IMG/VR virus record: IMGVR_UViG_3300025138_000066
Coordinates: 1-49,667 of that record
From: a virus
Strand: one strand, 5' to 3'
Length of the DNA: 49,667 bases
Shown here: in pieces, positions 21,056-41,976 of the stretch
Layout: each line of letters starts with the position of its first letter
How positions within the stretch are numbered: the stretch's first letter is position 1
Notes under the pieces: generated by a model
Told to the model about the DNA's origin: nothing
What the model saw: only the letters and a program-made list of their open reading frames with translations
The model's database searches: none
Position numbers and translations under genes: made by a program

Positions 21056-22813
21056 ATGGGAACAGATATTAATTTTATAAAACACTTAGGACATTCTGGA
21101 GGAGGGGCTAGTATACAACTTCCTTCTGATTCATTTGAAGGTTTTATAATGGAGCTTAATGTTACAGGAGCCAGTACTTTTCAGTTAAGAGGAAGAAATG
21201 TTGGTACTTATAATGCACAAGTTGATTGGGGAGATGGTACTGTAGAAACAGTAACTGCTTATAACGGAGGAACTCATGCTTACGCTTCTACAGGAACGTA
21301 TCAAATAAAGATAAGCGGTGATTTCCCTGGATTTGAGTATGGAAATACTACAGGAACTTATAAAGATTATATAACCAAAATAGTTCAGTGGGGTAATATA
21401 GAATGGAAATCCTTTTATAGAGCTTTTGCAAGTTTATCTTATTTAACATCGTTGCCTACAGACTATCCTGATATAACAGGTTTAATAGATAAAAGACCTT
21501 ATCAAATGTTTTTTAATAACATAAGACTTGTTGCTTGTGATTTATCTAATTGGCAAAATACAGGAAACTTTGTAGGAAGTGCTTTTCAAACGTTTTACGG
21601 TCTTAATTCTTGTACTAATATTAATTTAACAGGTTGGGATACAAGCGGTTTTACAGGTGTTCAAGATTTTATGGCAAACTGTGGTAGAGGTGCAGGAGGT
21701 TGCACAGTAACAGCACCTAATTTAGACTGGAGCGGGACTAATACTCTTTATAGAATGTTTTATAGAAGTTGTCTTAAAGCGGATACAGATATAAGCAATT
21801 GGACTTTAAGAGCAGCGGGAGTCAATTTAAATAGATTTTTCTATGAATCAGGTGGATTTAGTACACCAACATTTTCCTCAGTAAGTGAGATAGATATGTC
21901 TACTTGGAATAATACATCAGGTATTACTAGTATGCAATATTTTATGTTTAATGCAAATGCTATAAAAAATATTAATGTAACAAATTGGGATACATCTAAT
22001 GTTACTAATACGTTTAGAGCATTTTATGGTTGTGTGCAGCTTGAAGAAATAATAGGATTAAGTACAATAGATATTTCAAGCGTTTCTAGCGGAGACTTAA
22101 TGTTTTACAACACAAGAAAATTAAAATTTAACAATCATAATTTTGGAACAAGTTGGAATAATTGGGCAGCAGCTACATTTAATTTTTCCCAATTCTTTTA
22201 TAGAAATGGATATAGTCTTTCTGATGCAAATGCAGGACCTACTCCTACAGTAGCAAATTGGTCTATGCCTAATGCAACAGGAAATATATATAACTTATTT
22301 AGAGAAGCAAAATATACTGCAGGAAGTACTATAACTTTAAATTGGAATTATCCTAATTGTACAACGCTTCAACAATCTTTCTATATTTTAAAAGGTGTTA
22401 GTACATTAAATATTAATATGACAACTACCAATGTGTTAGTCAACTTTTTAAATTGTGCCAGGGGTGCTGCAAGTATGTCATCAATAACATTTGGCTCTAA
22501 CATGGATTTTAGCGGAGTTACTAATTTCCAAACCGCTTTTTATTCAATGGCAGGTACTTGTGATTTAGTATTTGATTCAGCTGTTGATTTCAGCTCTGTT
22601 ACTAATTTAGTAAGTATAGTAGGTGGTGGATCAAGAAAAATGACTACATCTAGTTATGATGCTTTTTTAGTAAGACTTGAAGCAACCAATAGCAATACAG
22701 TTGGATTAAGTGCAGGCCAATCTAATTATACAGGAAGCGGTGCTGGTGGAACTGCAAGAGCAGCATTAATAGCAGACCACGGTTGGACAATAACAGATGG
22801 AGGACCCGTATAA
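21056..22813 (+). CDS. BspA-like leucine-rich-repeat adhesin with PKD-like domain (585 aa)
   Basis: Residues ~55-90 form a PKD-like fold (VDWGDGTVETVTAY, THAYASTGTYQIKISGD). From ~95 to ~545 follow irregular repeats with the signature W-x-T/N-S/T-x-x-x-F-x-x-x-F/M-Y-x-C (WDTSNVTNTFRAFYGC; WDTSGFTGVQDFMANC), matching the BspA/DUF285 type of surface repeat. These are known from bacterial surface proteins that bind host or matrix molecules. There is no signal peptide, so it is built into the virion rather than secreted. It is the most likely receptor-binding protein of this block. The stop overlaps the next start. Confidence 0.75.
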   Translation: MGTDINFIKHLGHSGGGASIQLPSDSFEGFIMELNVTGASTFQLRGRNVGTYNAQVDWGDGTVETVTAYNGGTHAYASTGTYQIKISGDFPGFEYGNTTGTYKDYITKIVQWGNIEWKSFYRAFASLSYLTSLPTDYPDITGLIDKRPYQMFFNNIRLVACDLSNWQNTGNFVGSAFQTFYGLNSCTNINLTGWDTSGFTGVQDFMANCGRGAGGCTVTAPNLDWSGTNTLYRMFYRSCLKADTDISNWTLRAAGVNLNRFFYESGGFSTPTFSSVSEIDMSTWNNTSGITSMQYFMFNANAIKNINVTNWDTSNVTNTFRAFYGCVQLEEIIGLSTIDISSVSSGDLMFYNTRKLKFNNHNFGTSWNNWAAATFNFSQFFYRNGYSLSDANAGPTPTVANWSMPNATGNIYNLFREAKYTAGSTITLNWNYPNCTTLQQSFYILKGVSTLNINMTTTNVLVNFLNCARGAASMSSITFGSNMDFSGVTNFQTAFYSMAGTCDLVFDSAVDFSSVTNLVSIVGGGSRKMTTSSYDAFLVRLEATNSNTVGLSAGQSNYTGSGAGGTARAALIADHGWTITDGGPV

Positions 22814-24123: not shown

Positions 24124-24204
24124 TTGGAAGTATTTGGATACCTTGTAATGATATTCTTAGCGTATCCAATAGCTGCATTAATAATAAAGTCATGGAAAAA
24201 ATAA
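24124..24204 (+). CDS. Candidate TTG-start membrane micro-ORF (26 aa)
   Basis: From TTG 24124 to TAA 24204 the frame reads LEVFGYLVMIFLAYPIAALIIKSWKK: a single hydrophobic helix with a basic end (the TTG would be read as Met). It fills the otherwise empty gap between holin candidate and amidase, begins one base after the previous stop and overlaps the amidase start by 13 nt. An internal ATG would leave 18 residues. It could be a lysis regulator or translational coupler. Evidence is composition and fit only. Confidence 0.4.
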   Translation: MEVFGYLVMIFLAYPIAALIIKSWKK

Positions 24205-24881
24205 TTACATGCCCACACTGTAATACGGATTTTGATATGTCTATCACACCTCGTACTGAGGGGTCTAAATATTTATGGATCCTCGATAACGGTCACGGAG
24301 GTATGATAAGTGGAGTATATCAAACACCAGGTAAAAGATCTCCAGTATGGCCAGATGGTACACAGCTTTTTGAGGGAGAATTTAACAGAGCTATTGTGGA
24401 CAGACTAGTTAAAAAATGTGAAGCTAATAATATTGACTATATTAATCTAGTAGCTACTCCTAAAGATGTAAGTTTATCCGAAAGAGTTACTACTGCTAAT
24501 AGATTAGCTAAGTCCTCTGAGAAGCCTTGTATATATGTAAGCATACACGCAAATGGATATACTGATGAGTCAGCAAATGGGTGGTGTGTATATACTTCTG
24601 TAGGAGAAACTAAATCTGATTATATAGCAACAGTGTTATATGAAAAAGCTGACGCTGAGTTTCCTGAAAGAAAAATGAGACCAGACACTTATAGAGATGG
24701 AGATGTAGATCAAGAATCTAATTTTTATGTTATTGCTAATACTACTATGCCTGCTATATTATCAGAAAATTTCTTTATGACTAATTCTAAAGAATGTCAC
24801 GAAATACTTATGAGTGAATCAGGTAGAGACAGAGTTGCTAAGATACATTTTGAAATGATTCAACAATTAGAAAATGGCTAG
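24192..24881 (+). CDS. N-acetylmuramoyl-L-alanine amidase (endolysin)
   Basis: A zinc amidase of the Amidase_3 type that cuts between MurNAc and L-Ala of peptidoglycan. Expected residues are visible in order: H35 (LDNGHGG), a glutamate at 61 or 63 (LFEGEFNR), H119 (VSIHANG) as zinc ligands and catalytic E192 (LSENFFM). A short N-terminal region holds one CPHC pair (C7, C10), a half zinc knuckle not needed for catalysis. No signal peptide, so it needs a holin for access to the wall. It overlaps the following micro-gene by 8 nt. Confidence 0.9.
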   Translation: MEKIITCPHCNTDFDMSITPRTEGSKYLWILDNGHGGMISGVYQTPGKRSPVWPDGTQLFEGEFNRAIVDRLVKKCEANNIDYINLVATPKDVSLSERVTTANRLAKSSEKPCIYVSIHANGYTDESANGWCVYTSVGETKSDYIATVLYEKADAEFPERKMRPDTYRDGDVDQESNFYVIANTTMPAILSENFFMTNSKECHEILMSESGRDRVAKIHFEMIQQLENG

Positions 24882-27398: not shown

Positions 27399-30300
27399 AT
27401 GGAAGGACATGTTAATACATATGGCGGATTAAACAAAGATGCAGCTTATGATAGTATTAAGCCAAACATGTATATTGACGCATTAGATATTAGAATATCT
27501 ACTGATAAAGGAGAATCACAAGGAGCTTTTACTAACATAAAAGGAAACGAATTATCTTTTACTATTCCTACATCAGGAACTTTTGATAATAATCCTCCTG
27601 CTACTCCTATTAACTGGACAGCTTTAAATCCTGAAATTATTGGATATGGAACAATTAGAAATACTATTGTTTTATTTGTAGCAGATGATTCAGGAAGCAA
27701 AGGTTGGATTTATAAAGTTAACTATGACGCAGCTAGTCGTGTAGCTACTGCTCCCGAATTAGTTTATTTTAGTGAATTTTTAAATTTTAAAAAACAATGG
27801 CCTATAGAAGCTTTAGGTCGTTATGAAAATGCATCTATTCAAAAAGTTTATTGGACTGATTACAATAATTTATTTAGAACAATAAATATTGCAGATCCTT
27901 TAATAAATACTTTTAATGTAAGTAATATTGATATATATCCAGACGTAAAATATACTCAGCCAATTGTAGATAATGTAAGTGGAGGAGGAGAACTTCAAAC
28001 AGGAATGTATCAAATAGCTTACCGTCTTATTACTTCTGACGGAAAAGAAACTTTAATATCTCCTCCAAGTAATATGATTCACATAGTTGCTAGCTCTGAA
28101 TTTGCTGGTGTTTCACAATATGTAGGAGATAAAGAAACAGTTAATACTTTTAAGAGCATTACTATTTCTATAGACACAAGTAATTATTTAGAATTATTTG
28201 AACAAATAGAAATTTTTAGTTTATATTATGCAAGTCCTACAGCAACTCCAATTGCTTCTTCAATAGAAATTGTAAATATTATTGATAATAATACAACAAT
28301 AATTTATCAAGGAACAGAAGATTCTATATTTGACATAGAACTATTTACTTTTGCTAGCAAAAATTTTGCATTTAAAACGTTTAAAACTGTTGCTCAAAAA
28401 GATAATTATTTAGTAGGTGCTAATATAAAATCATCTACTATTAATTTAAATGATTTATTAGAAACTGGAGAAACTTTTGAATCAAAAACTGCAAGATATA
28501 ATAATACAAGCTCTTCTATTACAGGTACTAGTTTAGAAAAAGCTTTTAATGCAGAATTTAATAAAGATAAACATTGGGATTTAAATTGGCAAACAGCTGC
28601 TAAACAATATAAATATCAATCTAACGGAACTACTTTAGGAGGACAAAGTTCTGGAACTACTCCAAATATAAAATATAGTTTTCATTTAGAACCAATGACT
28701 GTTGATGTAGATGTACAGTCTGATTTTCATAATGTGGGAGGAAATATACATTATGGATTAGATAATCATGATTTAAATGACGGATATGGAGTAAGGCCTA
28801 ATCCAGCCTCGACTATTCCTAATACAGCTTCTCCTATAGTTTCTAGTTTATTACGAGGATATAAAAGAGGAGAAACTTATAGGTTTGGTATTGTTTTTTA
28901 TACATTAAAAGGAGAAGCAACTTATGTAGAGTATATAGGAGATATTAAGTTTCCTGATATATCAGAAGCTGATGGAGCAAATAATACTTCAAACTCTCCT
29001 CATTGGCCTTTAAGTACTGTGTATGATGGCACAACAGGTACTATAGGTAAAATAGGGCAACCTATTACAGTAGGATTAAACTTAGGAATAAAATTTGATA
29101 TAGATTTTAGTTCTTGTTCTAATTTATTAAAAAAGATTAATGGGTTTCAAATAGTTAGAGTAGATAGAGAAAATAGTGACAAAAGAAGATTGTGTCAAGG
29201 AATTATGAGTCCTTATGGAAATGTAAAAGTTCCTTCTACTGGTAGTGATCCTGCTCCTGAAAATTATGATTTTAGAAAAAACAACAGCATAAATGAAGTG
29301 CTGCATCAATTTAATACACCTCGTACTTGGAAATATAGTTTTGGGGCTGTTAGCTCATTTCCAAATAGTGGCGTAGATTCTTATGTATCAACTAGTGTAG
29401 ATATTGGAAATGATACTATGAAATATTTTATAGATGACCAAGATAATAGTGCAGTAGGTTCACCACATACTAATTACTCAACACTTTTTAATTTTAATTC
29501 TGCTGGTGAAACTGGAGCATTAACTAATACTATAATTAAATCTCAATATTTAGCTTTTTATTCTCCAGAAATATCTTATAATTTTAATAATATTCCTGAC
29601 TTAGCTATTAATGCTGCTAACAATGCTTCTTTATTAGTAACAGGATGTTATACTGCAGTAAGTAGTCCTGTTCCTGGATCAACACAAAATTCAGGAGATT
29701 ACAGAGAAGAATTTTTTAAAACTGGAGGACCGCAAGCATCAGCCATATCAGGCAATAACAGTACTTTTATTTGGGATGCTACTTATAAATTTAGAAGAGT
29801 AGGTCCTGTAAGTTTTAATAGTATTGAAAATATTAGAAAAATTAAAAGCTCTACTTACTTTGATATGCGAGATAGTACTAATGTGACTATTGATACTAAG
29901 ATAGAACAATTTCCTGACGATAACCAAAGAATAGCTTTATCAGGAACAAATCTTAAACCTAAAATGTCAGGAAGAGATATTATAGATGCTTCAAAGAGTG
30001 ATTCAGGGCAACCTAATGATTTAGTATTAAATGGTAATGGAGCTACTTATTTAAGAAATTATTTTGCATATATAGGAGCAAAAGTAAACAGTAATCAAAA
30101 TGGTGACAATGCTTTAAATAAACCTTCTGATGGTACAGGGTCTGGTCCTAATAATAGATCAGGAGCAGTAGCTAGAGCAGGAACTAATATTTCAGTATTA
30201 GTAGATACTTTTGCTGTAGACCCTTTAGATTCTACTGTTACATATAATAGTCCAGGAACAGATAAACCTTTGAGAGATTATTTTTTATTTGAAGGAAATA

Positions 30301-32036
30301 CTAATCATCTAGTAATTACTAACAATCCGCACATATCACCACAACCTGTTCCAGATGGTTCAGGAGGAACTAGTAATATAAGTAAAGGAAACGCTATTCC
30401 TATAGTAGATCTTGTTGTTCCTAAGAATGAGGTTTATGGAGGATTTACTATTAATGCTTTAGAAGCAAATAGTTTTATTCCTGCTTCTCCTGTAATTAAA
30501 ACAACTTTTGGAACAGACACTTATAGTCCTAAAGTATATGGAGGAGATATTTTCTTATCAATGTTTCACTTGCAAAAAGCAATGGTAGAATTTACAAAAG
30601 AGTTATATGAAGATAATGATGATTTTGTAAACTTATTTACAAGAACTGACTTAATGGTTACAGAAAGTGCTATTAATTTAAGTTTAAATAATAGTGCAAA
30701 TGTTACAAGAGGTATTAAGTTTACATTTAGCGGAAGTGAATACGAAGAGTGGAGACAAGAAGATAATAACTCTTCTAGTGATTTTGGAACAAAAGATCCT
30801 GGTTTAAGTTATTATAAAACTTATAGTTATAATCCTCTTTATTCTCAAATAAGTAAAGAAGTAAAATTCTTTGTACAACCAAGTAATGTAACAGATCTTT
30901 CATTAACTAATGATATAAGAGCTTTTATATCTAGTGTTAAAGTAAATGGAGAAGCTATAGATTCTTGGACACAATTTGCAATTAATGATTTTCATGATGT
31001 AGACGATCACGGTCCTATAAATAAAATTATAAATTTTAAAAATAACGTTTACTTTTTTCAAGATCAAGCAACAGGTGTTTATGCTATTAACAGAGAAGCT
31101 ATTACAACAACCGATGACGGAGTTCCTACAGAGTTAGGGTCTGCTAAAGGATGGGGTAAACATCAATACAATTCTGAAGAAGTAGGTTCTATACATCAAT
31201 GGGCAGTAGCTGCTACTAATACTGCTATTTATTTCTTTGATGCTATCCATAGAAAAATATATCAATTAGGTCAAGGTAAAACAGGTTTACAAACTAGTCC
31301 TTTATCAGAATTAAAAGGAATGCATTCTTATTTACAAGAATTAGGTAAAGATATTTTTACTAAAAAATCTTCTATTGCCACATTAGCTGCTCCTGGAGGA
31401 GACAATCCTATTTTATTATTAGGAGCTCATATAGGAGTAGATGAAATAAACAATGAAGTAATTTTTACTTTTTTATCTAAAAATGAAGGAGAAAAAGGAG
31501 ATTTTAAAAGTCTTGTATTTGATGAACTAGCAGGTCAATTTTCTACAGAATTAAGTGTTAAACCTCCTATATGGATTAATAATGGGGATACTTTATTAAG
31601 TCCTGACGTAGATAACGTTAATAAAATATATGCACATAATATAGGACTGTGGGGAAGCTTTTACGATACAGTGCAACCTTGTAATATAACATTAGTTATT
31701 AATCCTAAAGCAGATATAAATAAAGTTCTTAGATTTTTAGAATTTAATAGTATCGTTAGAGACGACAATAAAATAATAGACAGAACTAAAACTATTACAG
31801 GATTTAAAATTGCTACAGAGACACAAGATTCTGGAGTAATTCCTTACAGTGCAGGAAGAATAAAAAGACGTTTTGATAAATGGAGAATTAAACTTCCTAG
31901 AGATAATAATTCTACTAGTAAAAAGGGTCGTTTTAGATCTACGCATTTTTTATTAACTTTATATTTCGACAATACTTATAATAAAGAATTAATCATGAAT
32001 AGATTAGTTTCTTATTATAATCCACAAATATTTTAA
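27399..32036 (+). CDS. Tail stabilisation / muzzle protein (1,545 aa)
   Basis: The beginning (HVNTYGGLNKDAAYDSIKPN, then YIDALDIRISTDKGESQG) is the hallmark start of the crAss-like stabilisation protein, called muzzle in the crAss001 virion. The body is beta-rich with propeller-like blades: FSEFLNFKKQWPIEALGRYE; NNVYFFQDQATGVYAINREA; WAVAATNTAIYFFDAIHRKIY; LLGAHIGVDEINNEVIFTF. The C-terminal ~70 residues are basic beta. It should form the distal tail barrel that closes the channel and carries receptor-binding parts. No tape-measure or sheath gene is present, which agrees with a podovirus. Confidence 0.8.
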   Translation: MEGHVNTYGGLNKDAAYDSIKPNMYIDALDIRISTDKGESQGAFTNIKGNELSFTIPTSGTFDNNPPATPINWTALNPEIIGYGTIRNTIVLFVADDSGSKGWIYKVNYDAASRVATAPELVYFSEFLNFKKQWPIEALGRYENASIQKVYWTDYNNLFRTINIADPLINTFNVSNIDIYPDVKYTQPIVDNVSGGGELQTGMYQIAYRLITSDGKETLISPPSNMIHIVASSEFAGVSQYVGDKETVNTFKSITISIDTSNYLELFEQIEIFSLYYASPTATPIASSIEIVNIIDNNTTIIYQGTEDSIFDIELFTFASKNFAFKTFKTVAQKDNYLVGANIKSSTINLNDLLETGETFESKTARYNNTSSSITGTSLEKAFNAEFNKDKHWDLNWQTAAKQYKYQSNGTTLGGQSSGTTPNIKYSFHLEPMTVDVDVQSDFHNVGGNIHYGLDNHDLNDGYGVRPNPASTIPNTASPIVSSLLRGYKRGETYRFGIVFYTLKGEATYVEYIGDIKFPDISEADGANNTSNSPHWPLSTVYDGTTGTIGKIGQPITVGLNLGIKFDIDFSSCSNLLKKINGFQIVRVDRENSDKRRLCQGIMSPYGNVKVPSTGSDPAPENYDFRKNNSINEVLHQFNTPRTWKYSFGAVSSFPNSGVDSYVSTSVDIGNDTMKYFIDDQDNSAVGSPHTNYSTLFNFNSAGETGALTNTIIKSQYLAFYSPEISYNFNNIPDLAINAANNASLLVTGCYTAVSSPVPGSTQNSGDYREEFFKTGGPQASAISGNNSTFIWDATYKFRRVGPVSFNSIENIRKIKSSTYFDMRDSTNVTIDTKIEQFPDDNQRIALSGTNLKPKMSGRDIIDASKSDSGQPNDLVLNGNGATYLRNYFAYIGAKVNSNQNGDNALNKPSDGTGSGPNNRSGAVARAGTNISVLVDTFAVDPLDSTVTYNSPGTDKPLRDYFLFEGNTNHLVITNNPHISPQPVPDGSGGTSNISKGNAIPIVDLVVPKNEVYGGFTINALEANSFIPASPVIKTTFGTDTYSPKVYGGDIFLSMFHLQKAMVEFTKELYEDNDDFVNLFTRTDLMVTESAINLSLNNSANVTRGIKFTFSGSEYEEWRQEDNNSSSDFGTKDPGLSYYKTYSYNPLYSQISKEVKFFVQPSNVTDLSLTNDIRAFISSVKVNGEAIDSWTQFAINDFHDVDDHGPINKIINFKNNVYFFQDQATGVYAINREAITTTDDGVPTELGSAKGWGKHQYNSEEVGSIHQWAVAATNTAIYFFDAIHRKIYQLGQGKTGLQTSPLSELKGMHSYLQELGKDIFTKKSSIATLAAPGGDNPILLLGAHIGVDEINNEVIFTFLSKNEGEKGDFKSLVFDELAGQFSTELSVKPPIWINNGDTLLSPDVDNVNKIYAHNIGLWGSFYDTVQPCNITLVINPKADINKVLRFLEFNSIVRDDNKIIDRTKTITGFKIATETQDSGVIPYSAGRIKRRFDKWRIKLPRDNNSTSKKGRFRSTHFLLTLYFDNTYNKELIMNRLVSYYNPQIF

Positions 32037-34763
32037 ATGCCAGGAACTCCGCCTAAATATGATTTACCTGTTAGTTCTTTTAAAAATTATAAAAGGCCTA
32101 AAGCAAAAGATAGTATCTTAAAAAGACAAGCTGGAGAAGAATACAATGTAAATCCTAGTGCAAGAGTTTATCCTTATAATTATACTCCTAAATTTAGTAA
32201 GTACGGTTTTTTAGAAAAACAAAAAGATGAAAATCAATTATTAGGAGTAGCAGGTTTTGGTTTTCCTAGAAAAGGAATTAATTTAGATTTTGTAGGAATT
32301 AAACCATTAGACAGTAACCCTTATTTTAAAGGAGTAGTAGGTGGAGGAGTTTCAAAACAAATAGGAGATTTAAATATAGGAGCCTCTGTTGATACCGCTA
32401 TTACAGGTTATCCTGATAGATCAGGAAATTTTATAAAAGATAAAACAAAGCTTAATCCTAAATTAAAACTAAAATATAATTTTAAAAATGGAGGCTCAAT
32501 GGCTCCTATTATTCCTACTTATTATAAATCTAAAGGAACACCTATTTATAGAGATACTACTGCTTTGCCTTTTAAAGAAGGAGGTTTTGTCAATTCTTTA
32601 AAAAAACAAATTAAAAATTCTAGAAAATTTGTAAACGGAGGTGAAACAGAAGATATAGGTAAAGGTATGGCTTATGAGTTTTGGAAAAATAAAACTCAGC
32701 CTGTAGATAAATTTGGAAGATCTAATGTTAATTATCAAGGACCTACTACATTTAGAAGTTTAAGTAATCAAGTTAATGCTCCTATACCAACTAAAGCCGA
32801 TAAGCTTACTAGTCAATATGGATACGATTATAAAAAAACATATGATGAATCTGGAACACCTCATTATTATACAAAAAAAGAGGGAACAGATTCTTGGATA
32901 GATTTAGAAACTGAAGGAAATAAAAATAGTTTAGCAGCTGTAAAAGCTTTAGCTTGGGGCGATGATACAAGTTATATAGGAACTGAAGCACATAGAAACC
33001 AAATAAGAGACCAGTTAATTAAAAATGAAGATGCTAGAATAAAAGGGTTATCTTCTGAAGAATATACTGATGAATTGTCTTCAATGTATTTTCCTAAAAA
33101 AGAACAAGCTGCTACAAAAAGTTTTAATGAACAAGATTATAAAGATATAGAATCTAATTTTGGATCAGATGTAGCAAACCTAATGCAATCTGGTGTAGTA
33201 GGTTCTGCTAATTCACAGCAATCTGAAATGCCTCCTAAAAAACTTGTGTTTGGACAACCTGGGTTTAGAGAACAACAAACAGCTTTAAATCAAGGATACC
33301 AAACTAAAGCTGGGGCTGCATATTCAAATAAATTAAATCAAGAATATGTTAAAAATATTAGTAATGAATTAATAGATAAAATTATTAATTCTAAAATGAG
33401 TAATATCGAAAAAAGAGAGTTAATTCAAAATCCAGAAAAACTACAAAATTTAGTAATTAATTATGAAGGTTGGAAAACTTCACCACAAGGCGGAGCAAAT
33501 GATGCATATAGTAGAAGAGGTGCTGTAAAATCAGATGATTTTATTATTAATAGTGATGGAACTGCTGATTATCGAGCAGGAGCTAATCCAGTTGTTATTG
33601 ATGGTGGAGTAAATATGTTAGATAAAGAATGGATTACAGGAGTTGCAGGAGGAAAAGCTTTTTCTGAACTATTAGGAGGTACAGCAGGAATGATTGCTTC
33701 AAAATTTAAAAGTAATCCAATTGTACAAGCAACAGGAAAAACATTAACACAACCTTTGTTAACAAATACAGCTCCACAATTTTCTAAATATATGTTAAGT
33801 CCTTTAAAAATAGCTGACGTTGCGGGAGGTGTTTATGGAGTAAATCAATTTACAGATTCTGATTCTATGACAAGACAATCTATTAGAGATTACCAACAAG
33901 GAAAAGGTTCATTTGAAGATGCGGCATTTAATACAAGTATGAGTTTATTATCAGCACTTCCTGTAGGAGCAGAAATATTTAGATCAGGTTATGGAAATTT
34001 AGTAGGAGGTCTTAATGCAATAAGAAAAGTTCCGCAAGTTAGAGATTTTTTACCAGGAATGGGGCAAGTTTTAAAAAGAGAAGCAAAATTTAAAGATTTA
34101 TTTAACACACAAAAATATACTAGATTTACTAAACCAGGTCAGGTAGAATCTAAAACAGGTAATTATTGGTATAATAGAGTAGATGGAACAGATTTAGGGA
34201 AATATCAAAAAGGTGCTGATCAAGCTACTGATTTAGTTTTAACTGATGCTCGTGCTAGTGAATTTAATGCAGCAAAAATACAAGATCGAATTAATAAAGG
34301 AAAAAGATTTGGGTCTTTAGAAGAAAAAGCAGCTAAAAGAAGTATAGCTCCTATTGATGATCCAAAAATGGTAGCTTATAGAAAAACAATAACAGATCCA
34401 GAAAAAAGAAAAATGTTTGATACGGCATTACAAAATCCAGATAAATATTGGAAACTTCCTGGATATACAGACGATATAGGAGAATTAATAGCAAAAGCTC
34501 CTGCTAATGCAGATGAACTTAATCTTTCTAAAGAATTATTTAAAGATATAAAAGCATACGATGCAACAAATTGGAAAACTGGTTATAATTTACTTGAAGA
34601 TTTTAGTGGTTCATATGGAGGTGCAAAATCAAAAGCATTAAGACAAAGTAAAAAAGTTATTGATTATCTTGGAAAATATTCTAGTAAATTAGGTAAAATA
34701 GGTAAAACAGAACAAGGAGGATTAGATCTTGTAGAAGCAAATTTTGTAGGATATGATGACTAA
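32037..34763 (+). CDS. Giant virion cargo protein with Gly-Gly motifs (908 aa)
   Basis: Residues ~40-160 are beta-rich with Gly repeats (LLGVAGFGFPRKGINLDFVGI, GVVGGGVSKQIGDLNIGASV), reminiscent of an outer-membrane barrel strand pattern. Three Gly-Gly motifs follow (FKNGGSM, FKEGGFV, FVNGGET, residues ~150-205). A Gly/Ala-rich hydrophobic segment at ~530-600 (GVAGGKAFSELLGGTAGMIA) could insert in a membrane. The C-terminus is helical and basic. It begins directly after the muzzle stop. Likely ejected with the DNA to help cross the envelope. No known family recognised. Confidence 0.55.
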   Translation: MPGTPPKYDLPVSSFKNYKRPKAKDSILKRQAGEEYNVNPSARVYPYNYTPKFSKYGFLEKQKDENQLLGVAGFGFPRKGINLDFVGIKPLDSNPYFKGVVGGGVSKQIGDLNIGASVDTAITGYPDRSGNFIKDKTKLNPKLKLKYNFKNGGSMAPIIPTYYKSKGTPIYRDTTALPFKEGGFVNSLKKQIKNSRKFVNGGETEDIGKGMAYEFWKNKTQPVDKFGRSNVNYQGPTTFRSLSNQVNAPIPTKADKLTSQYGYDYKKTYDESGTPHYYTKKEGTDSWIDLETEGNKNSLAAVKALAWGDDTSYIGTEAHRNQIRDQLIKNEDARIKGLSSEEYTDELSSMYFPKKEQAATKSFNEQDYKDIESNFGSDVANLMQSGVVGSANSQQSEMPPKKLVFGQPGFREQQTALNQGYQTKAGAAYSNKLNQEYVKNISNELIDKIINSKMSNIEKRELIQNPEKLQNLVINYEGWKTSPQGGANDAYSRRGAVKSDDFIINSDGTADYRAGANPVVIDGGVNMLDKEWITGVAGGKAFSELLGGTAGMIASKFKSNPIVQATGKTLTQPLLTNTAPQFSKYMLSPLKIADVAGGVYGVNQFTDSDSMTRQSIRDYQQGKGSFEDAAFNTSMSLLSALPVGAEIFRSGYGNLVGGLNAIRKVPQVRDFLPGMGQVLKREAKFKDLFNTQKYTRFTKPGQVESKTGNYWYNRVDGTDLGKYQKGADQATDLVLTDARASEFNAAKIQDRINKGKRFGSLEEKAAKRSIAPIDDPKMVAYRKTITDPEKRKMFDTALQNPDKYWKLPGYTDDIGELIAKAPANADELNLSKELFKDIKAYDATNWKTGYNLLEDFSGSYGGAKSKALRQSKKVIDYLGKYSSKLGKIGKTEQGGLDLVEANFVGYDD

Positions 34764-34800: not shown

Positions 34801-37800
34801 ATGAAAGATATATTAAGCATATTTGATAATCAGGTAGTAGATGAGCAAATAACTAATGTTACTCCTGATCCTCCTAAAAAAACTAAAAAAGAACTTACAG
34901 AAGGACTTGTTTTAAAATATATGGAAGAGTACGGCATAACTAATCCTTATATACAAAGTGCAATGATGGGAATTATTCTCAATGAAGGAGGCTTTACGGG
35001 AAAACCAGAAAATTTATATTATACTACTGCTGGCAGACTTGCAGAAGTGTGGTCAACATTTTCAAATTATACAGACAGTAAAGGAAGAAAAGCAAGAGCT
35101 CCTGAAGGTCAAGGTAAAAAATATGCAAATGAATTAGCTAAAGGTGGAAAATATTTAAAAAATCCTAAAGCATTAGCCAATTTTATTTATGCAACACAAA
35201 AAGGTAACAGGCCAAATACTGACGATGGGTATGTTTATAGAGGAAGAGGGTTAAATCAATTAACAGGAAGAGGATCCTATAAATCATTAGGAAAAGATTT
35301 AGGAGTAGATTTAGTAACTAATCCTGAGTTACTAGATACTGATCCTGATTTACAAGCAAAAGCAGCTGTTCATTTTTTACATAAAAGATTAACAAAAGAA
35401 TTGCCTTATTTAACTGAAAAATATTCTAGATACAAAAAAAGATTTGGTAATTATGTAGATATTAATAATATAGATAATCTTAAAGATGCTAGTTTCATAT
35501 TAACAAGTGCTAATGCAGGTTTTGGTTCTTATCCTAAACAAAAAGCATTTAATGATAGATTAGCTGCTGCTAAAAAATATGAAACAAAAGTTATACAACG
35601 TAAAGAAGGTTTGCAAGATGAGTTTGTAATAAATTCTGACGAATTAACAACTACTGAGGACCCAATAGTTAAAGAACCTATAGTTGAAGAACCTGCAGTT
35701 ACTAGTACTAATAAAGTAACTCCTAATTTTAGAGAAGAAGTAGATACTCCTAAAATTGAAGAAAATATTACACCTTTACCTGTAAACATACCTACTTCAG
35801 TAAATACTATTCCTTCTGATTTAGATTTTTCAGAACCTCAATTTATAAATTCTAATGTTCAAAATTTTTCTGCAGAAGAATTAAAAAGACAAGAAGCATT
35901 TAATACAGCGTTATCTCAATCCGTTATGACAAACAGAGCTCTTCCTAAATTTGGACAAGGGTCTATGTTTGGTCAAGGACAATTGTTTGGAGCTGATAAG
36001 AAAAAATATGGAGGATCTATACGTCCTAGATACTATAATAATGGAGGACCTCTTGATGGAGAACCTGTAAAAAATTATGAAATACCTACAGGTAATCCTG
36101 TAAAAAGTAAAAGTTTTTTAGGAGCTTTAGGAGATATAGCAAGATTTAGTGCTGCTAAAAGTTTAGCAAAAACAGAAGTTCCTGAAAAAGGAGAAGGTAT
36201 GAGTAATTACGATTATTTTAATAGCCTTGATAAAAAACAAAAAGCTTCTATACCGTATAAAGAACAATTAGCTAATAGAGCTGTACAAACTGAAGATGTT
36301 ATTACCTCACAAATTAGAGAAAACATAGCAAAAATAGGCAGTGAAATAGGCGCAAATTATGGACCTGAAAATAGTATAGAAAGCCAGTATGATTATTTAG
36401 GAGTACCTTTTATGTATAATCAAGATTCTTGGTTTCATACTTTAAAAGATAATATATATACTAGTCCTTATACTTGCCAAGGAATAGCTTGTGCAATTGG
36501 TAGAAAAGCAGGAGCTGTAAATGCTAAAAGCTATAAAACTGCAAGTGCTAGAGGTACAGAAGGAGCTCCTTGGGCAATAGAAACAGGAGGCCAAACTGTA
36601 GATCATGCTGATGTTTTAGCAGGTAAAGGTTTATATCCTGTAGATGATATACAAGCTGGAGATATGGTTAGGCATGGTTATAAAGAAGGTAGAACAAGTC
36701 ATAATACAACTGCTTTAGGCCCGTCAGTTTCTGCTAGAGATCAGTATAATCCAGAAGTTGTAAAATTTCCTGCAACTTATGGCAGCCATTGGACAAGCGG
36801 AGTAATGAAAAGTGACGATTATTATATGGATCCAAAAACGGATCAAGCTTTTAGATATTTAAGAAATTTACCTGCATATCAAGAAAAATTAGCTAGTGCT
36901 CAAAATGTAAATGCAGATTATCAAAACTATTTAGATTCAAAAGCAATTGCAAATTTACCTATAAAAGAAGCAGAATTAATAAGAAACGAAAATCCTATTG
37001 AAGTTCCTTATATTACTGAAAGAAAATATCCTGATACATTAAAAGGAAGAAGACAACAAAGACAAAATGATAAATTTATTGCACAATTTCCTGATAATTA
37101 TAATTTTAAATTTTACAAAACTGGAGGAAATTTAGGAGGTTCTCCTTGTCCTTCAGGTCAAATTTATGATGAAACTTCTAAGTCATGTGTTTCATACGAA
37201 ACTTGGGAAAAAAATAATTCAGGCTTTAACATGGAAGATGTTAAAAAAGAAAATGAAGATTATTTTAATGCAAATGAATGGTTTAAAAATTATCATAATT
37301 CTCCTAAGTATTATGAAATGACAAGAAGTTCTTTTCCTGAAGGAGGTGTAGGAGATATGCAAGCAGGTAGTTTAAGAAAACGTAGGGAGCAAAATTTAAA
37401 GAGTATTCCTCCTTTAAAAATACTTCCTCAAGAAGAAGAGGGTCTTGGTGGATTATCTATGACTGATAATGGGCAAATAGAACTTTTTCCTGAAGGTTTT
37501 AAAACTGGGACAACAACTCATGAATTAAGCCATTCTACTGATAGGCCTGTATATTTTTATCCAGGTACTGAAATAGGCAGACAAAGAATTATGCCTGAAT
37601 CAGATAGTAAATATATAGATAAAAGAAAAGCAGATGTATTAGGAGACAGTAGAGAATATTTTAATTATAAAGAATATTATGATAATATGATTAAAAATGA
37701 TCCAGAAAAGTTTAAAAAAGCTGAAGAAAAATTTTTAGATTTTTCAAATTATGTAGCAGAAGATACCGAAACTAGAGCTAGATTAAATACAATAAGACGA

Positions 37801-38031
37801 ATGGCTCAAGAACAAGGATTATATGATCCTTTTGCTGAAGGAGTTTCTTCTGATTTATATTATCAAAAATTAAAAAAACTTAAACTTAAAACTAAAGATC
37901 GTTATAAACAAGGATATAATCCTATGAAGCAGCTTCAAAATACTTTTAGCGATGAAGAAATTATATGGATGTTAAATAATATATCTGAAAATAAAACTAA
38001 TAATAGCAATGACACAGAAGGAATGGCGTAA
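34801..38031 (+). CDS. Multi-enzyme virion protein: GH19 lysozyme, NlpC/P60-like, HExxH peptidase (1,076 aa)
   Basis: Domain 1 (~25-260): GH19-type muramidase/chitinase fold, with E62 in NEGGFTG, ENLYYTT, and the signature YRGRGLNQLTGRGSY (146-160). A Pro/Thr linker and two Gly-Gly motifs (KYGGSI; NNGGPL, near 400-420) follow. Domain 2 (~500-690): an NlpC/P60- or CHAP-like pattern with C559 (YTCQGIACAIG), GDMVRHGY (620-627) and H634 (SHNTTALG). Another Gly-Gly pair lies near residue 775. Domain 3 (~840-1000): a zinc metallopeptidase motif HELSH (907-911) with E987 or E990 (EDTETRARLN) as possible third ligand. It probably opens the wall at entry. Confidence 0.8.
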   Translation: MKDILSIFDNQVVDEQITNVTPDPPKKTKKELTEGLVLKYMEEYGITNPYIQSAMMGIILNEGGFTGKPENLYYTTAGRLAEVWSTFSNYTDSKGRKARAPEGQGKKYANELAKGGKYLKNPKALANFIYATQKGNRPNTDDGYVYRGRGLNQLTGRGSYKSLGKDLGVDLVTNPELLDTDPDLQAKAAVHFLHKRLTKELPYLTEKYSRYKKRFGNYVDINNIDNLKDASFILTSANAGFGSYPKQKAFNDRLAAAKKYETKVIQRKEGLQDEFVINSDELTTTEDPIVKEPIVEEPAVTSTNKVTPNFREEVDTPKIEENITPLPVNIPTSVNTIPSDLDFSEPQFINSNVQNFSAEELKRQEAFNTALSQSVMTNRALPKFGQGSMFGQGQLFGADKKKYGGSIRPRYYNNGGPLDGEPVKNYEIPTGNPVKSKSFLGALGDIARFSAAKSLAKTEVPEKGEGMSNYDYFNSLDKKQKASIPYKEQLANRAVQTEDVITSQIRENIAKIGSEIGANYGPENSIESQYDYLGVPFMYNQDSWFHTLKDNIYTSPYTCQGIACAIGRKAGAVNAKSYKTASARGTEGAPWAIETGGQTVDHADVLAGKGLYPVDDIQAGDMVRHGYKEGRTSHNTTALGPSVSARDQYNPEVVKFPATYGSHWTSGVMKSDDYYMDPKTDQAFRYLRNLPAYQEKLASAQNVNADYQNYLDSKAIANLPIKEAELIRNENPIEVPYITERKYPDTLKGRRQQRQNDKFIAQFPDNYNFKFYKTGGNLGGSPCPSGQIYDETSKSCVSYETWEKNNSGFNMEDVKKENEDYFNANEWFKNYHNSPKYYEMTRSSFPEGGVGDMQAGSLRKRREQNLKSIPPLKILPQEEEGLGGLSMTDNGQIELFPEGFKTGTTTHELSHSTDRPVYFYPGTEIGRQRIMPESDSKYIDKRKADVLGDSREYFNYKEYYDNMIKNDPEKFKKAEEKFLDFSNYVAEDTETRARLNTIRRMAQEQGLYDPFAEGVSSDLYYQKLKKLKLKTKDRYKQGYNPMKQLQNTFSDEEIIWMLNNISENKTNNSNDTEGMA

Positions 38032-38070: not shown

Positions 38071-41000
38071 ATGAAAAAAGGAATTAATAATCCAGGATTT
38101 AGAGCACTGCCCTCAAGTGTTCAAAATAATATTTTATCTAACATGAGATATGGCGGAAAAAAGTACGCAGCTGGAGGAGCTATGCCTATGGAACAGTTGA
38201 CTGAGTTTGATGAAGGAGGTCGTCATGAAGAAAATAGTTTAGGAGGTATTCCACAAGGAATGAATCCTGAAGGGCAAATGAATTTAGTAGAAGAGGGAGA
38301 AACTAAGTTCGATGCTGAAAATTATATTTATTCTGATTCATTAAAAGTAGATAAAGAATTAGCAGAAGCTTTTAACCTTAATCCTAAGATGGTAGGTAAA
38401 ACTTTTGCAGATGCAAGTAAAATGGCAGGACGTAAAAAATCTAAGCGTGAGGGAGATGCTATAGAAATGGCTGCTAATGAAAAAGATTTAATGAATCTTA
38501 TGGAAGCACAAGAGGCTTTCAAACAAGCACGAATAGAAGAGAAACTACAAGAAATTGCCGAGTTAGATCCTAACGCTCTTCCTGCTTTAATGGGACAAGG
38601 ACAACCACAAGGTGATCCAGCAATGGGAGGCCAAATGCAAGAAGCTCCTATGGATGAGCAAGCTATGATGGAACAGCAAATGATGGCTGAACAACAAGCA
38701 GGCGGAGGACAACCATCTCCTGAAGAAATGGCTATGATGGAGCAACAGCAAAATCAAATGATGGGTCAGCAAGAAGGTATGATGAGAGCAGGAGGTACGA
38801 TGGATTTTGAACCTCATATGATGTACAAAGATAGTAACGGGATCCAAGCAAATACTTACGAAAAACATCTATCATTAAAAAATGAAGGCTACGGTCATAG
38901 TATGGGTTATGGTGGTTATACAAAAAAACGTTCATATGCACCAGGTGGTTTTATGGGAATGAATATGGCTAATGCAGGTATGATGGCTCCAGGTCCTTGT
39001 GGAACTCCTGGAAATCCTCCTTGTCCAGGAAAGGAAACAGAAATTAGTACAGTTAATGTAGACAGAAATACAGCTACCAGTGGTACAGGGGGATTAGGAT
39101 CTATAAAATTTGATTCTAATTTAGGTTTTGGAGAAGCAGATTCTGACATACAAGCTTTAGAACAAGATCTTAGACAAAGTATGTTAAGCAATCAAGGAGC
39201 TTATGTCAGTACTCCTCCTCCTGCAGAGCTTGGAAAATTAACAAGAAGACAAGAAAGAACAGGAGAATTTGTAAAGGGAACGTTTGTTCCTGGTAATACT
39301 ATAGCAGAAAATATTGCAGAAAGACGAGAAAATAGAAAAGATTTTAGACAAAAACCAAATACAGCAGGTCGTAGATATACAAAAGTAAATAGACTTCTTA
39401 ATCCATTTAGAGCATCAGATAATAGAATAGAAAATACTGGTAATCAATATTTTGCTCTAAAACATCCTAGAGCAACAGAAGATGCAGAAGGAAATAGTCT
39501 TAGAGGTTTAAGTAATCTTTTCTTAGGAGTAAAAGATAACAGTAAATTTGTAGGCAGATTTGGTGAAGGAAAAATAAAAAGCGGAGGTGGTACTAGATTT
39601 AGAAGAAATGAATTTGGAGGCAATTTAATGCAACCTGAACAACCTATGCAAATGCGTAGAGGAGGAAAAATGTGTTACGGATGTGGAGGTGCTATGCACA
39701 ATTACGGAGGACGTATGGATGGAATACAGCCTAATCAAGCTAAATATGGTAAATGGTTAGATTTTACTTCTAATGTTTTAGGAGCAGGTGCTAGCGCTAT
39801 AGGAAATATTCCTCTTATAGGACAAGCTATTGGAGCGGGATTAGGAACTCTATCAGGAGTAACAGGGTCTTTAGCGGAAAATGCTCGTACTTCTGAAGAT
39901 GGAAAAGTTAATTGGCAAGGAATAGATTATGGAGATATGGCTTTGCAAGCTGGTATGGGAGCTGGTGCAGGTGCTTTAGGTGCTGCAGGTTCTGTATTAA
40001 CTGCTGCAGGAGGAAAAGGAGTAGATGCTCTTACTACTAGTAAATACGAGAAAAAAGAAGCTATGTTCCAAGATATTTTAACTAATCCAGAAAAATATTC
40101 TGAAGAACAATATGAACAAGCTCTTGGTAGACAACAAGAGATGGGAAAAAATAGTGGACTTTTTAATGCAATTAATGCTGGTGTAGGAATAGCAGGATCA
40201 ATAGCTGGAGGAAAAATAGATAAAGCAGGAGAAGCTGCTGTAAAAGGAGCAGAAGTAGCTACTGATGTAGCTAAAACTGCAGATACTGTAATTAGTGCTA
40301 GTGATAATATTTTACCAGAGGCATTTGATCAAGCTAGTGCTGCTGTTAATGCTGCTAAAACTGCAGACGTTGCTAGCAATTTTATGACTAAAGCAAATAA
40401 TGTTGCTGATAATAAATTTATGCAACAAGGAGTTTCTATGGGAATGGATGCTTTAGATAAAGTTGATCAAACTAATACGCAAGAAACTGTAGCAGATGAA
40501 TTAGCAGTTGAACAAAAAAGAGCTGCAATGATGACTAATGATCCTGATTCTATGTATTATGATCCAATAAATCAACCTGTTAATATGGCTACAGCAGGAA
40601 CAGGAATGATGGCTAATGGTGGTTATATGGGAACTCGTTCTTATGGAACAGGAGGTAGGCCAGGTCTTTGGGCTAACATACAAGCTAAGAAAAAAAGAAT
40701 GGGAAGTAATTATCGTCCTGCTCAACCTGGAGATCCAAATAGGCCAACAGCTGAAGCAATAAAAGCTTCTCAAAATGCTATGGGCGGAAGTTTAGATTAT
40801 TCTGCTAATACTTATGATAATGGAGGTAAACTTACTTTAATGAAGCAAGTAGCGCAGCCTGATGGAACTATGGTTAACAGAAGTGTTACTTATAATTCTT
40901 TACAAGAACTTTTAGCAGATTCAGAAATAGTACAAAAATATGGAGGGAAGGAAAATGTAAAAGAATTATTTTCTGAAAGATTTAAAGACTCTAAAATTCC

Positions 41001-41976
41001 TTTTCAAAAAACTATGTTAGATGCTCCGCAAACTATGGCAAATGTAGATAATATGCCCAGTGCTAATCTTACTCCAGCAAATGCAGCACAGATAGATGAG
41101 AATTTAAAAATGATAGAAGATCAGGAAAGAATGGCTTATATGCAAAATCAATTGCAAGTAAGTCCCGATAAACTAGCAGAATTAGAAGCGGCTAAAAATT
41201 TAGAAAGAACTGTAGATTCTGAAAATACTGTATTTCAAGAAGATTTGAATAAAAATAATATGCCAGATTATTTAGAACAAGCAGAAAATTTCTCAATTGA
41301 AGAAGACAAAGAAGTAGAAAAGAAAAATAAAGTTAAAACAAAAGAAGAGCCAGTTATAGAAGAAGATCCTAATAAAATTGTAAAAACTGACGATATAGAA
41401 AATACTAAATTTGATTTTAATTATAAAGAAAGCTTCCCTCAATTTGCTGCTAAATATGCCGCTCCTTTATATAATATAGGGTCAGGATTGCTTAGTAAAC
41501 AAAAAGATTACATGCCAGAGTTTGTTCCTTTAGAAACTCCTAAATTTGATCCTACTCAAGCAATAAATAATGTTAAAAGACAAGTATCAGGATTAAGAAA
41601 AAGTTTAAATAAAGTAGGAGCTAATCCTTCTAATCTTTTAGCACTAGCTCAATCAGGTTCTAGATTAGAAAATGAAACATTGATGACCTATGATAAACTT
41701 CAAAAAGAGTTAGATTTTAGAGGTAATCAATATAATACTACTCAAAAGCAATCTTTAAAGAAATATAAAAAACAATTAGAAATGTCTTTTGATGAAGCTA
41801 AAAGGAAATCTATCCAAGAAGGTATTAAGCAAATGGGTAAAATACAAGAAACAGAATCTGCTAATTATTTAGCTGCTCAATATAATTCAATGGCTGCTCC
41901 TAACTTAGGAACATTTGAATACACTCCTTTTTTAGAAGGCTTGTTAAATAAAATGAATAAGAAAAAAAATAAATAA
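38071..41976 (+). CDS. Giant cargo protein with GIPxG-type head domain and many Gly-Gly motifs (1,301 aa)
   Basis: Residues ~25-110 hold a compact domain with HEENSLGGIPQG, NLVEEGETKF and YIYSDSL, a motif set I have seen in other Bacteroidota-phage cargo proteins. A Gln/Met-rich stretch (~175-240) follows. At least ten aromatic- or basic-flanked Gly-Gly sites are spread over the chain. Two glycine-zipper hydrophobic segments (~580-600 IGQAIGAGLGTLSG; ~620-650 GMGAGAGALGAAGSV) suggest membrane insertion. DLNKNNMPDYLE near residue 1060 looks like a calcium loop. The C-terminal ~150 residues are coiled coil. Probably an ejected pore or channel protein. Confidence 0.6.
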   Translation: MKKGINNPGFRALPSSVQNNILSNMRYGGKKYAAGGAMPMEQLTEFDEGGRHEENSLGGIPQGMNPEGQMNLVEEGETKFDAENYIYSDSLKVDKELAEAFNLNPKMVGKTFADASKMAGRKKSKREGDAIEMAANEKDLMNLMEAQEAFKQARIEEKLQEIAELDPNALPALMGQGQPQGDPAMGGQMQEAPMDEQAMMEQQMMAEQQAGGGQPSPEEMAMMEQQQNQMMGQQEGMMRAGGTMDFEPHMMYKDSNGIQANTYEKHLSLKNEGYGHSMGYGGYTKKRSYAPGGFMGMNMANAGMMAPGPCGTPGNPPCPGKETEISTVNVDRNTATSGTGGLGSIKFDSNLGFGEADSDIQALEQDLRQSMLSNQGAYVSTPPPAELGKLTRRQERTGEFVKGTFVPGNTIAENIAERRENRKDFRQKPNTAGRRYTKVNRLLNPFRASDNRIENTGNQYFALKHPRATEDAEGNSLRGLSNLFLGVKDNSKFVGRFGEGKIKSGGGTRFRRNEFGGNLMQPEQPMQMRRGGKMCYGCGGAMHNYGGRMDGIQPNQAKYGKWLDFTSNVLGAGASAIGNIPLIGQAIGAGLGTLSGVTGSLAENARTSEDGKVNWQGIDYGDMALQAGMGAGAGALGAAGSVLTAAGGKGVDALTTSKYEKKEAMFQDILTNPEKYSEEQYEQALGRQQEMGKNSGLFNAINAGVGIAGSIAGGKIDKAGEAAVKGAEVATDVAKTADTVISASDNILPEAFDQASAAVNAAKTADVASNFMTKANNVADNKFMQQGVSMGMDALDKVDQTNTQETVADELAVEQKRAAMMTNDPDSMYYDPINQPVNMATAGTGMMANGGYMGTRSYGTGGRPGLWANIQAKKKRMGSNYRPAQPGDPNRPTAEAIKASQNAMGGSLDYSANTYDNGGKLTLMKQVAQPDGTMVNRSVTYNSLQELLADSEIVQKYGGKENVKELFSERFKDSKIPFQKTMLDAPQTMANVDNMPSANLTPANAAQIDENLKMIEDQERMAYMQNQLQVSPDKLAELEAAKNLERTVDSENTVFQEDLNKNNMPDYLEQAENFSIEEDKEVEKKNKVKTKEEPVIEEDPNKIVKTDDIENTKFDFNYKESFPQFAAKYAAPLYNIGSGLLSKQKDYMPEFVPLETPKFDPTQAINNVKRQVSGLRKSLNKVGANPSNLLALAQSGSRLENETLMTYDKLQKELDFRGNQYNTTQKQSLKKYKKQLEMSFDEAKRKSIQEGIKQMGKIQETESANYLAAQYNSMAAPNLGTFEYTPFLEGLLNKMNKKKNK

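What the first reader, a model, noticed from the sequence alone, without database searches (positions are those of the whole stretch)
34801..38031. One virion protein with three wall- or protein-cutting modules
A GH19-type lysozyme (E62, YRGRGLNQLTGR), an NlpC/P60- or CHAP-like region (C559, GDMV, H634) and a HELSH metallopeptidase motif (907-911) lie in one 1,076-residue chain. Glycan and peptide cutting in one cargo protein would make an entry tool that opens peptidoglycan in two ways. The peptidase may process the protein itself or its neighbours.
Basis: partly seen in the sequence, partly recalled or inferred. Interest (0 to 1): 0.85.

Follow-up and report, generated by a model that had tools for sequence, protein, structure and literature searches.

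The report
Modular wall-cutting crassvirus entry protein
A phage related to crAssphage appears to carry in its particle a large protein that joins a cell-wall-cutting enzyme to a zinc-protease-type domain; relatives keep the protease-type domain but swap the wall cutter, so this looks like an interchangeable entry tool rather than the triple cutter first proposed.

Summary
The window is a fragment of a Crassvirales phage. The 1,076-aa ORF at 34801-38031 is real and sits between the muzzle gene and cargo gene C1. Of the three proposed modules, two hold. (1) Residues ~37-260 are an endolysin-type GH19 muramidase with the catalytic Glu pair E62/E70. (2) Residues ~853-1068 are a zincin-like metallopeptidase domain. 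In 13 divergent relatives only six columns are invariant, four of them H907, E908, H911 and E990. The AlphaFold model (pLDDT 71) has the zincin core, and solved zincins head the weak fold matches. (3) The NlpC/P60 or CHAP reading of C559/GDMV/H634 is not supported: no profile matches, a home-made NlpC profile scores it like shuffled sequence, and this middle region is replaced in the nearest relative. The new point is that the zincin domain recurs just downstream of the muzzle gene, fused to different wall cutters: GH19, GH24 plus Amidase_2, lambda-type lysozyme, and tail lysozyme. Homologues in cultured Cellulophaga phages phi14:2 and phi4:1 are annotated as MS-detected virion proteins. Swapped modules begin and end at GG tags (14 of 19 edges, 2.7 expected). 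Best reading: an ejected 'polyvalent' protein that opens peptidoglycan, with the zincin probably processing it or its neighbours.

The parts
34801..38031 (+). 1,076-aa ejection/cargo-type protein (P0001)
   Evidence: ORF; identical protein in L002
34909..35580 (+). GH19 endolysin-type muramidase domain, residues ~37-260 (E62 at 34984-34986, E70 at 35008-35010)
   Evidence: Pfam PF00182 1e-6, PHROG 5e-24, PDB 8p8e 1e-15 and 4ok7 1.3e-15
36007..36051 (+). GG-tag linker YGGSIRPRYYNNGGP, left border of the swapped middle region
   Evidence: Alignment with L003
36052..37122 (+). Middle region, residues 418-774, function unknown; contains C559 (36475-36477), GDMV (36658-36669), H634 (36700-36702); replaced in relative L003
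   Evidence: No family match; NlpC profile no better than shuffles; 20% identity block
37114..37131 (+). GG-tag YKTGGN (residues 772-777), right border of the swapped region
37357..38004 (+). Zincin-like metallopeptidase domain, residues 853-1068
   Evidence: 13-member family A9; AlphaFold pLDDT 71.3, pTM 0.73; Foldseek
37519..37533 (+). HELSH (H907, E908, H911), predicted zinc site
   Evidence: Invariant in 13 relatives
37768..37770 (+). E990, predicted third zinc ligand, on the second active-site helix
   Evidence: Invariant; lies in helix 136-152 of the model
27399..32036 (+). Muzzle gene (crAss_MUZ)
   Evidence: PF25731 1.2e-145
32037..34763 (+). 908-aa protein with GG tags between muzzle and P0001, probable co-cargo
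   Evidence: Position; 898-aa counterpart in L003; GG tags
38071..41976 (+). Cargo protein C1 homologue (crAss_CARG1)
   Evidence: PF25725 1.1e-26
24192..24881 (+). Separate Amidase_3 endolysin, which argues that P0001 is not the lysis enzyme
   Evidence: PF01520 5.5e-22; PHROG 6.6e-28

Best explanation
P0001 is a crassvirus ejection-type cargo protein of the 'polyvalent' sort. It is packaged in the particle, leaves through the muzzle ahead of or with the DNA, and its N-terminal GH19 domain cuts glycan strands to open a local hole in the host wall. Its C-terminal zincin-like domain most likely acts on proteins: it would cut the long cargo chains (itself or neighbours) into working modules during assembly or after ejection, perhaps at the GG-tagged joints between modules. 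Shown here: the gene, the GH19 domain with catalytic residues, the zincin signature and fold, the muzzle/C1 context, and the recurring fusion with other wall cutters. Inferred: packaging of this particular protein, enzyme activity, order of events, and the protease's substrate.
For: GH19; E62/E70, Q153, T155, N238 and R253 fit the active site listed for PaGH19Lys (E51, E60, Q127, T129, N188, R197; PMC12329726). Context: muzzle, ORF, P0001, C1; separate amidase endolysin. Zincin: invariant H907/E908/H911/E990; model with N-helix, three strands, HExxH helix and Glu helix, pLDDT 71.3, as described for polyvalent zincins; PDB top list almost all zincins; viral top hits are phi14:2 and phi4:1 structural proteins, E 8e-5 and 3e-4. 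The same domain just after a muzzle in L009, L012, L013, L015, L016, L017, L028 and phi4:1. Fused wall cutters: tail lysozyme PF18013 5e-32 in phi4:1 gp041, GH24 and Amidase_2 in L016, lambda lysozyme 1.6e-20 in L028. phi14:2 g070 and phi4:1 gp041 are annotated from MS/MS of virions. Module edges at GG tags, 14 of 19 against 2.7 expected.
Against: No virion data for this phage. Foldseek against PDB gives no match with E<=0.001. phi14:2 g070 has the zincin units but no wall cutter, so the two activities are not always coupled. crAss001 has no wall-cutter gene between muzzle and C1. Processing at GG tags is only a correlation with module borders. Bayfield et al. expect cargo to leave partly unfolded, so it would have to refold in the periplasm to act.
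Confidence: 0.72

Rival explanations
1. The protein is an ejected wall opener, but the zincin acts on host proteins in periplasm or cytoplasm (counter-defence or remodelling) rather than on phage cargo.
For: Iyer et al. discuss post-injection action of such domains; a gut crassvirus has a homologous domain at the N-terminus of its gp47-like cargo.
Against: The recurring fusion with wall cutters and the GG-bordered modules fit processing better; no host target is known.
Confidence: 0.3
2. The zincin domain has lost or never had peptidase activity and serves as a packaging or portal-binding module.
For: N4 vRNAP is packaged unprocessed although its zincin-containing region is needed for encapsidation (reported in PMC5512222).
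Against: The only near-universal residues are the catalytic HExxH and E, which is not expected of a pure scaffold.
Confidence: 0.15
3. One reading: three cutters, with the middle region an NlpC/P60- or CHAP-like peptidase, so peptidoglycan is opened in two ways.
For: C559, D-I-Q-A-G-D-M-V and SHNTT are spaced roughly as in NlpC/P60 enzymes (sequence inspection); the different L003 middle also has QPGDI and a later NH.
Against: No Pfam, PHROGs, NCBIfam or PDB match; NlpC profile score -2.0, reached by about 24% of the scored shuffles; in the weak BLAST alignment C559 faces Lys in L003; AlphaFold of the region failed.
Confidence: 0.15
4. P0001 is the lysis endolysin or a chance fusion, not a virion protein.
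For: phi14:2 carries GH19 as a separate predicted endolysin.
Against: The window has its own Amidase_3 endolysin; MS-annotated homologues sit at the same place; the protein is conserved in L002 and L003.
Confidence: 0.06

Closest known systems
Polyvalent proteins with zincin-like MPTase and lysozyme domains (Iyer et al. 2017, PMC5512222)
   Same: Disparate enzymes in one injected chain; zincin as hub domain; lysozyme fusions in phage-type members; self-processing proposed.
   Different: This zincin family has no Pfam match at E<=1 in P0001; crassvirus locus after the muzzle; GH19, lambda-lysozyme and Amidase_2 partners; GG-tagged module borders.
Cellulophaga phage phi4:1 gp041 and phi17:2 homologue
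   Same: Wall lysozyme plus zincin domains, directly after a muzzle-like gene; phi4:1 gp041 annotated from virion MS/MS.
   Different: PF18013 tail lysozyme instead of GH19; two zincin units; no counterpart of the middle region.
crAss001 cargo proteins C1 (gp45) and C2 (gp46) (Bayfield et al. 2023, PMC10172136)
   Same: Same position downstream of the muzzle; cargo expected to exit via portal and tail.
   Different: P0001 has no CARG1 domain; crAss001 has no extra gene between muzzle and C1.
Virion-associated peptidoglycan hydrolases with two catalytic domains (HydH5 of phiIPLA88; abstract of PMC3150257 seen, CHAP+LYZ2 layout from own knowledge)
   Same: More than one wall-active domain in a virion protein.
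   Different: HydH5 has no zincin and is not a crassvirus cargo; two wall cutters are shown here only for relative L016, not for P0001.

Membership tests
GH19 (endolysin type) | Profile match above curated cut-off | tested here: met
   PF00182 29.2 bits vs 25.5; PHROG endolysin 4.8e-24; PDB endolysins ~1e-15
GH19 (endolysin type) | Catalytic Glu pair and cleft residues | tested here: met
   E62, E70 (8 apart rather than 9), Q153, T155, N238, R253; the His before the first Glu is N61
GH19 (endolysin type) | Muramidase activity | not testable with these tools
   Needs a lysis or zymogram assay
NlpC/P60 or CHAP | Profile similarity | tested here: not met
   No library match; NlpC profile no better than shuffles (the profile had only four sequences)
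NlpC/P60 or CHAP | Conserved Cys-His dyad | tested here: inconclusive
   C559 faces Lys in L003 in a weak alignment (E 0.047); homology of the two middles is uncertain; no other relatives found
NlpC/P60 or CHAP | Papain-like fold | tested here: inconclusive
   AlphaFold pLDDT 34.6 overall, about 20-25 in this region
Zincin-like metallopeptidase | HExxH plus downstream Glu | tested here: met
   Invariant in 13 sequences
Zincin-like metallopeptidase | N-helix, three-stranded sheet, HExxH helix, Glu helix | tested here: met
   Elements H2-15, E20-22, E32-34, E41-43, H52-62 (HExxH 55-59), H136-152 (E138) in the model
Zincin-like metallopeptidase | Significant fold match to a solved zincin | tested here: inconclusive
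   Top PDB hits nearly all zincins, but best E 0.55
Zincin-like metallopeptidase | Zinc-dependent proteolysis | not testable with these tools
   Needs an assay
Phage-type polyvalent protein | Disparate enzymatic domains in one chain | tested here: met
   GH19 + zincin; relatives with other combinations
Phage-type polyvalent protein | Packaged and injected with DNA | tested here: inconclusive
   Only by homologues annotated from MS/MS; injection not tested
Phage-type polyvalent protein | Zincin belongs to one of the 12 published clades | not tested
   Published alignments not at hand; no Pfam match for the domain
Crassvirus cargo protein C1 | CARG1 domain | tested here: not met
   Absent from P0001, present in the next gene

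The most novel reading that the evidence does not exclude
Crassviruses and relatives carry self-processing ejection polyproteins: interchangeable effector modules (wall cutters and others) joined by [YF]xxGG tags, with a resident zincin family that cuts at or near those tags to release modules during or after ejection.
Probability: 0.22. Interest if true: 0.82.

Novelty: new variant of a known kind. Interest (0 to 1): 0.6.

Why it matters
How crassviruses, dominant gut phages, get protein and DNA through the host envelope is open, and the papers searched here do not name a wall-opening or protease component among their cargo. This gives a named gene position, a new zincin-type domain family with predicted zinc ligands, and cultured phages (phi14:2, phi4:1) in which it can be tested directly. 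The swapping of wall cutters around a constant zincin, at GG tags, suggests a general plug-in design for phage entry proteins.

Tried and rejected
AlphaFold on residues 440-1076 with 7 sequences failed (pLDDT 34.6) and is not used. NlpC/P60 test with a profile of E. coli MepS, MepH, NlpC and lambda K: no signal. Searches for relatives of the middle region in IMG/VR, GTDB genomes, plasmids and phage records found only the 100% copy. tblastn of the HELSH part against phage records found nothing; the link to phi14:2 appeared only with a profile. The genome scan with the zincin alignment found nothing. E987 was first considered as third ligand; it is Tyr in L017, so E990 is preferred. A double-glycine-leader reading of 'ELTDDEIxxYxxGG' was considered: the spacing is off by one and it was not pursued. 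The idea that P0001 is the lysis enzyme was rejected because of the separate amidase and the synteny.

Full report
What the window is. The 49,667-base window is an IMG/VR virus record from a Crassvirales phage: terminase, portal and major capsid genes, Ring_1, a muzzle protein at 27399-32036 (PF25731, 1.2e-145) and cargo protein C1 at 38071-41976 (PF25725, 1.1e-26). Portal searches return crAss001, Bacteroides, Flavobacterium and Cellulophaga phages. The finding's ORF, P0001, lies between muzzle and C1, preceded by a 908-aa ORF. In crAss001 the muzzle (gp44) is followed directly by C1 (gp45), so two genes are extra here.

Observation. ORF and motifs are as described. The protein is identical in a second contig and is conserved in L003: about 62% identity over residues 1-439 and 84% over 761-1076.

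GH19 module. Residues ~37-260 match GH19 endolysins. Compared with the solved endolysin PaGH19Lys, whose active site includes H50, E51, E60, Q127, T129, N188 and R197 (PMC12329726), P0001 has N61, E62, E70, Q153, T155, N238 and R253. The two Glu are 8 rather than 9 apart and the His is replaced by Asn, also in L003. Muramidase activity is therefore likely but not tested. The window has its own Amidase_3 endolysin at 24192-24881, so P0001 need not serve lysis.

Zincin module. No Pfam or NCBIfam model matches. The family was built step by step: L009, L010, L013, L016 and L017, then phi14:2 g070 by profile, phi4:1 and phi17:2, L027 and L028. In the 13-sequence alignment only H907, E908, H911, E990, R999 and N1059 are invariant. 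hhalign links the sub-groups with probabilities of 94-97%. AlphaFold on this alignment gave pLDDT 71.3, pTM 0.73, and the order N-helix, three strands, HExxH helix, later helix with E990, which is the core described for zincins of polyvalent proteins (PMC5512222). Foldseek against PDB: no match below 0.001, but most of the top 20 are zincins (selecase, anthrax lethal factor, Wss1, SPRTN, IrrE). Against viral models the top four (E 8e-5 to 9e-4) are phi14:2 and phi4:1 structural proteins and two gut crassvirus proteins.

Middle region. Residues 418-774 contain C559, GDMV and H634. By eye they resemble NlpC/P60 spacing, but no library matches, a four-sequence NlpC profile scores them like shuffles, and AlphaFold failed. 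In L003 this region is replaced (20% identity over the block); a weak alignment puts Lys opposite C559. The third cutter is therefore not supported, nor excluded.

Comparative finding. The zincin-bearing gene lies directly after a muzzle gene in L009, L012, L013, L015, L016, L017, L028 and phi4:1 (home-made muzzle HMM; the hits in L028 and phi4:1 are weak, 4e-8 and 1e-6), and after the annotated structural protein g071 in phi14:2, itself a muzzle match. Its partners differ: GH19 (window, L003); GH24 and Amidase_2 with a second HExxH in a 2,190-aa ORF (L016); lambda-type lysozyme (L028, 1.6e-20); PF18013 tail lysozyme (phi4:1 gp041, 5e-32); half a CARG1 domain and no wall cutter in phi14:2 g070. 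I rely on those annotations and did not see the spectra.

Module borders. Pairwise comparisons show modules replaced between GG tags: GGP...YxTGG in P0001/L003, YQEGG...YQxGG in L013/L016 and L009/L013, VAQxGG in L009/L013. Of 19 edges of divergent blocks, 14 lie within 6 residues of a GG against 2.7 expected. The edges were chosen and some are shared between related pairs, so the probability is only indicative. The form [YF]xxGG is enriched in C1 (6 vs 0.9; 9 vs 1.0 in L003) and L016 (6 vs 0.95), and only nominally in P0001 (3 vs 0.6, p 0.03, many proteins tested).

Mechanism. Most likely P0001 is packaged and ejected, GH19 opens the wall, and the zincin processes cargo. Domains, motif conservation, synteny and fusions are shown; packaging of P0001, activities, timing and substrate are inferred. 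Iyer et al. proposed such processing for other polyvalent proteins and note that P1 DdrB is processed while N4 vRNAP is packaged uncut, so both outcomes have precedent.

Known or new. The principle (lysozyme plus zincin in an injected polypeptide) is known from polyvalent proteins. What appears new is the family without a Pfam model, its fixed place after the crassvirus muzzle, the range of wall cutters, and the GG-tagged borders. The crassvirus structural paper does not mention peptidase, protease or lysozyme, and targeted literature searches found no prior description. Subscription papers and preprints were not searched, so priority is not certain.

Noticed in passing
L020 30984-34142 (phi14:2 g070/g069): Two zincin units follow the first half of the CARG1 (C1) domain in g070, and the rest of the domain seems to start in g069 (KGKSFADASK), as if zincins were inserted into the C1 gene.
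   Followed up: partly
L024 8413-9315 (cr114_1 gp053): A stand-alone member of the zincin family (THEQAH, with TAG read as Gln) lies between portal and major capsid genes of a gut crassvirus; it could be a maturation protease.
   Followed up: partly
L018 16120-23145 (crAss001 gp47) and L025 9449-16873 (Dulem virus 41): A different HExxH motif (YHEAFH) near the C-terminus of the RNAP-associated gp47; the Dulem protein also has the present zincin type at its N-terminus.
   Followed up: no
L016 8228-14797: A 2,190-aa ORF with GH24, two HExxH motifs and Amidase_2 directly after the muzzle gene.
   Followed up: partly
L017 8612-15331: A 2,240-aa counterpart with the zincin domain and a second HELGH motif but no recognisable wall cutter; its C-terminal part matches no family.
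   Followed up: partly
window 38071-41976: C1 homologue is rich in [YF]xxGG tags (6 vs 0.9 expected), and several divergent blocks against L003 end at GG tags.
   Followed up: yes
window 37147-37188: CPSGQIYDETSKSC, a short Cys-pair motif before the zincin domain, kept in L003, L009, L013, L016 and L017 (as CPPGYIYD...CVP); only weakly like CBM_14.
   Followed up: no
window 21056-22813: 585-aa protein with DUF285 (BspA-like) repeats among the structural genes, possibly a fibre or receptor-binding protein.
   Followed up: no
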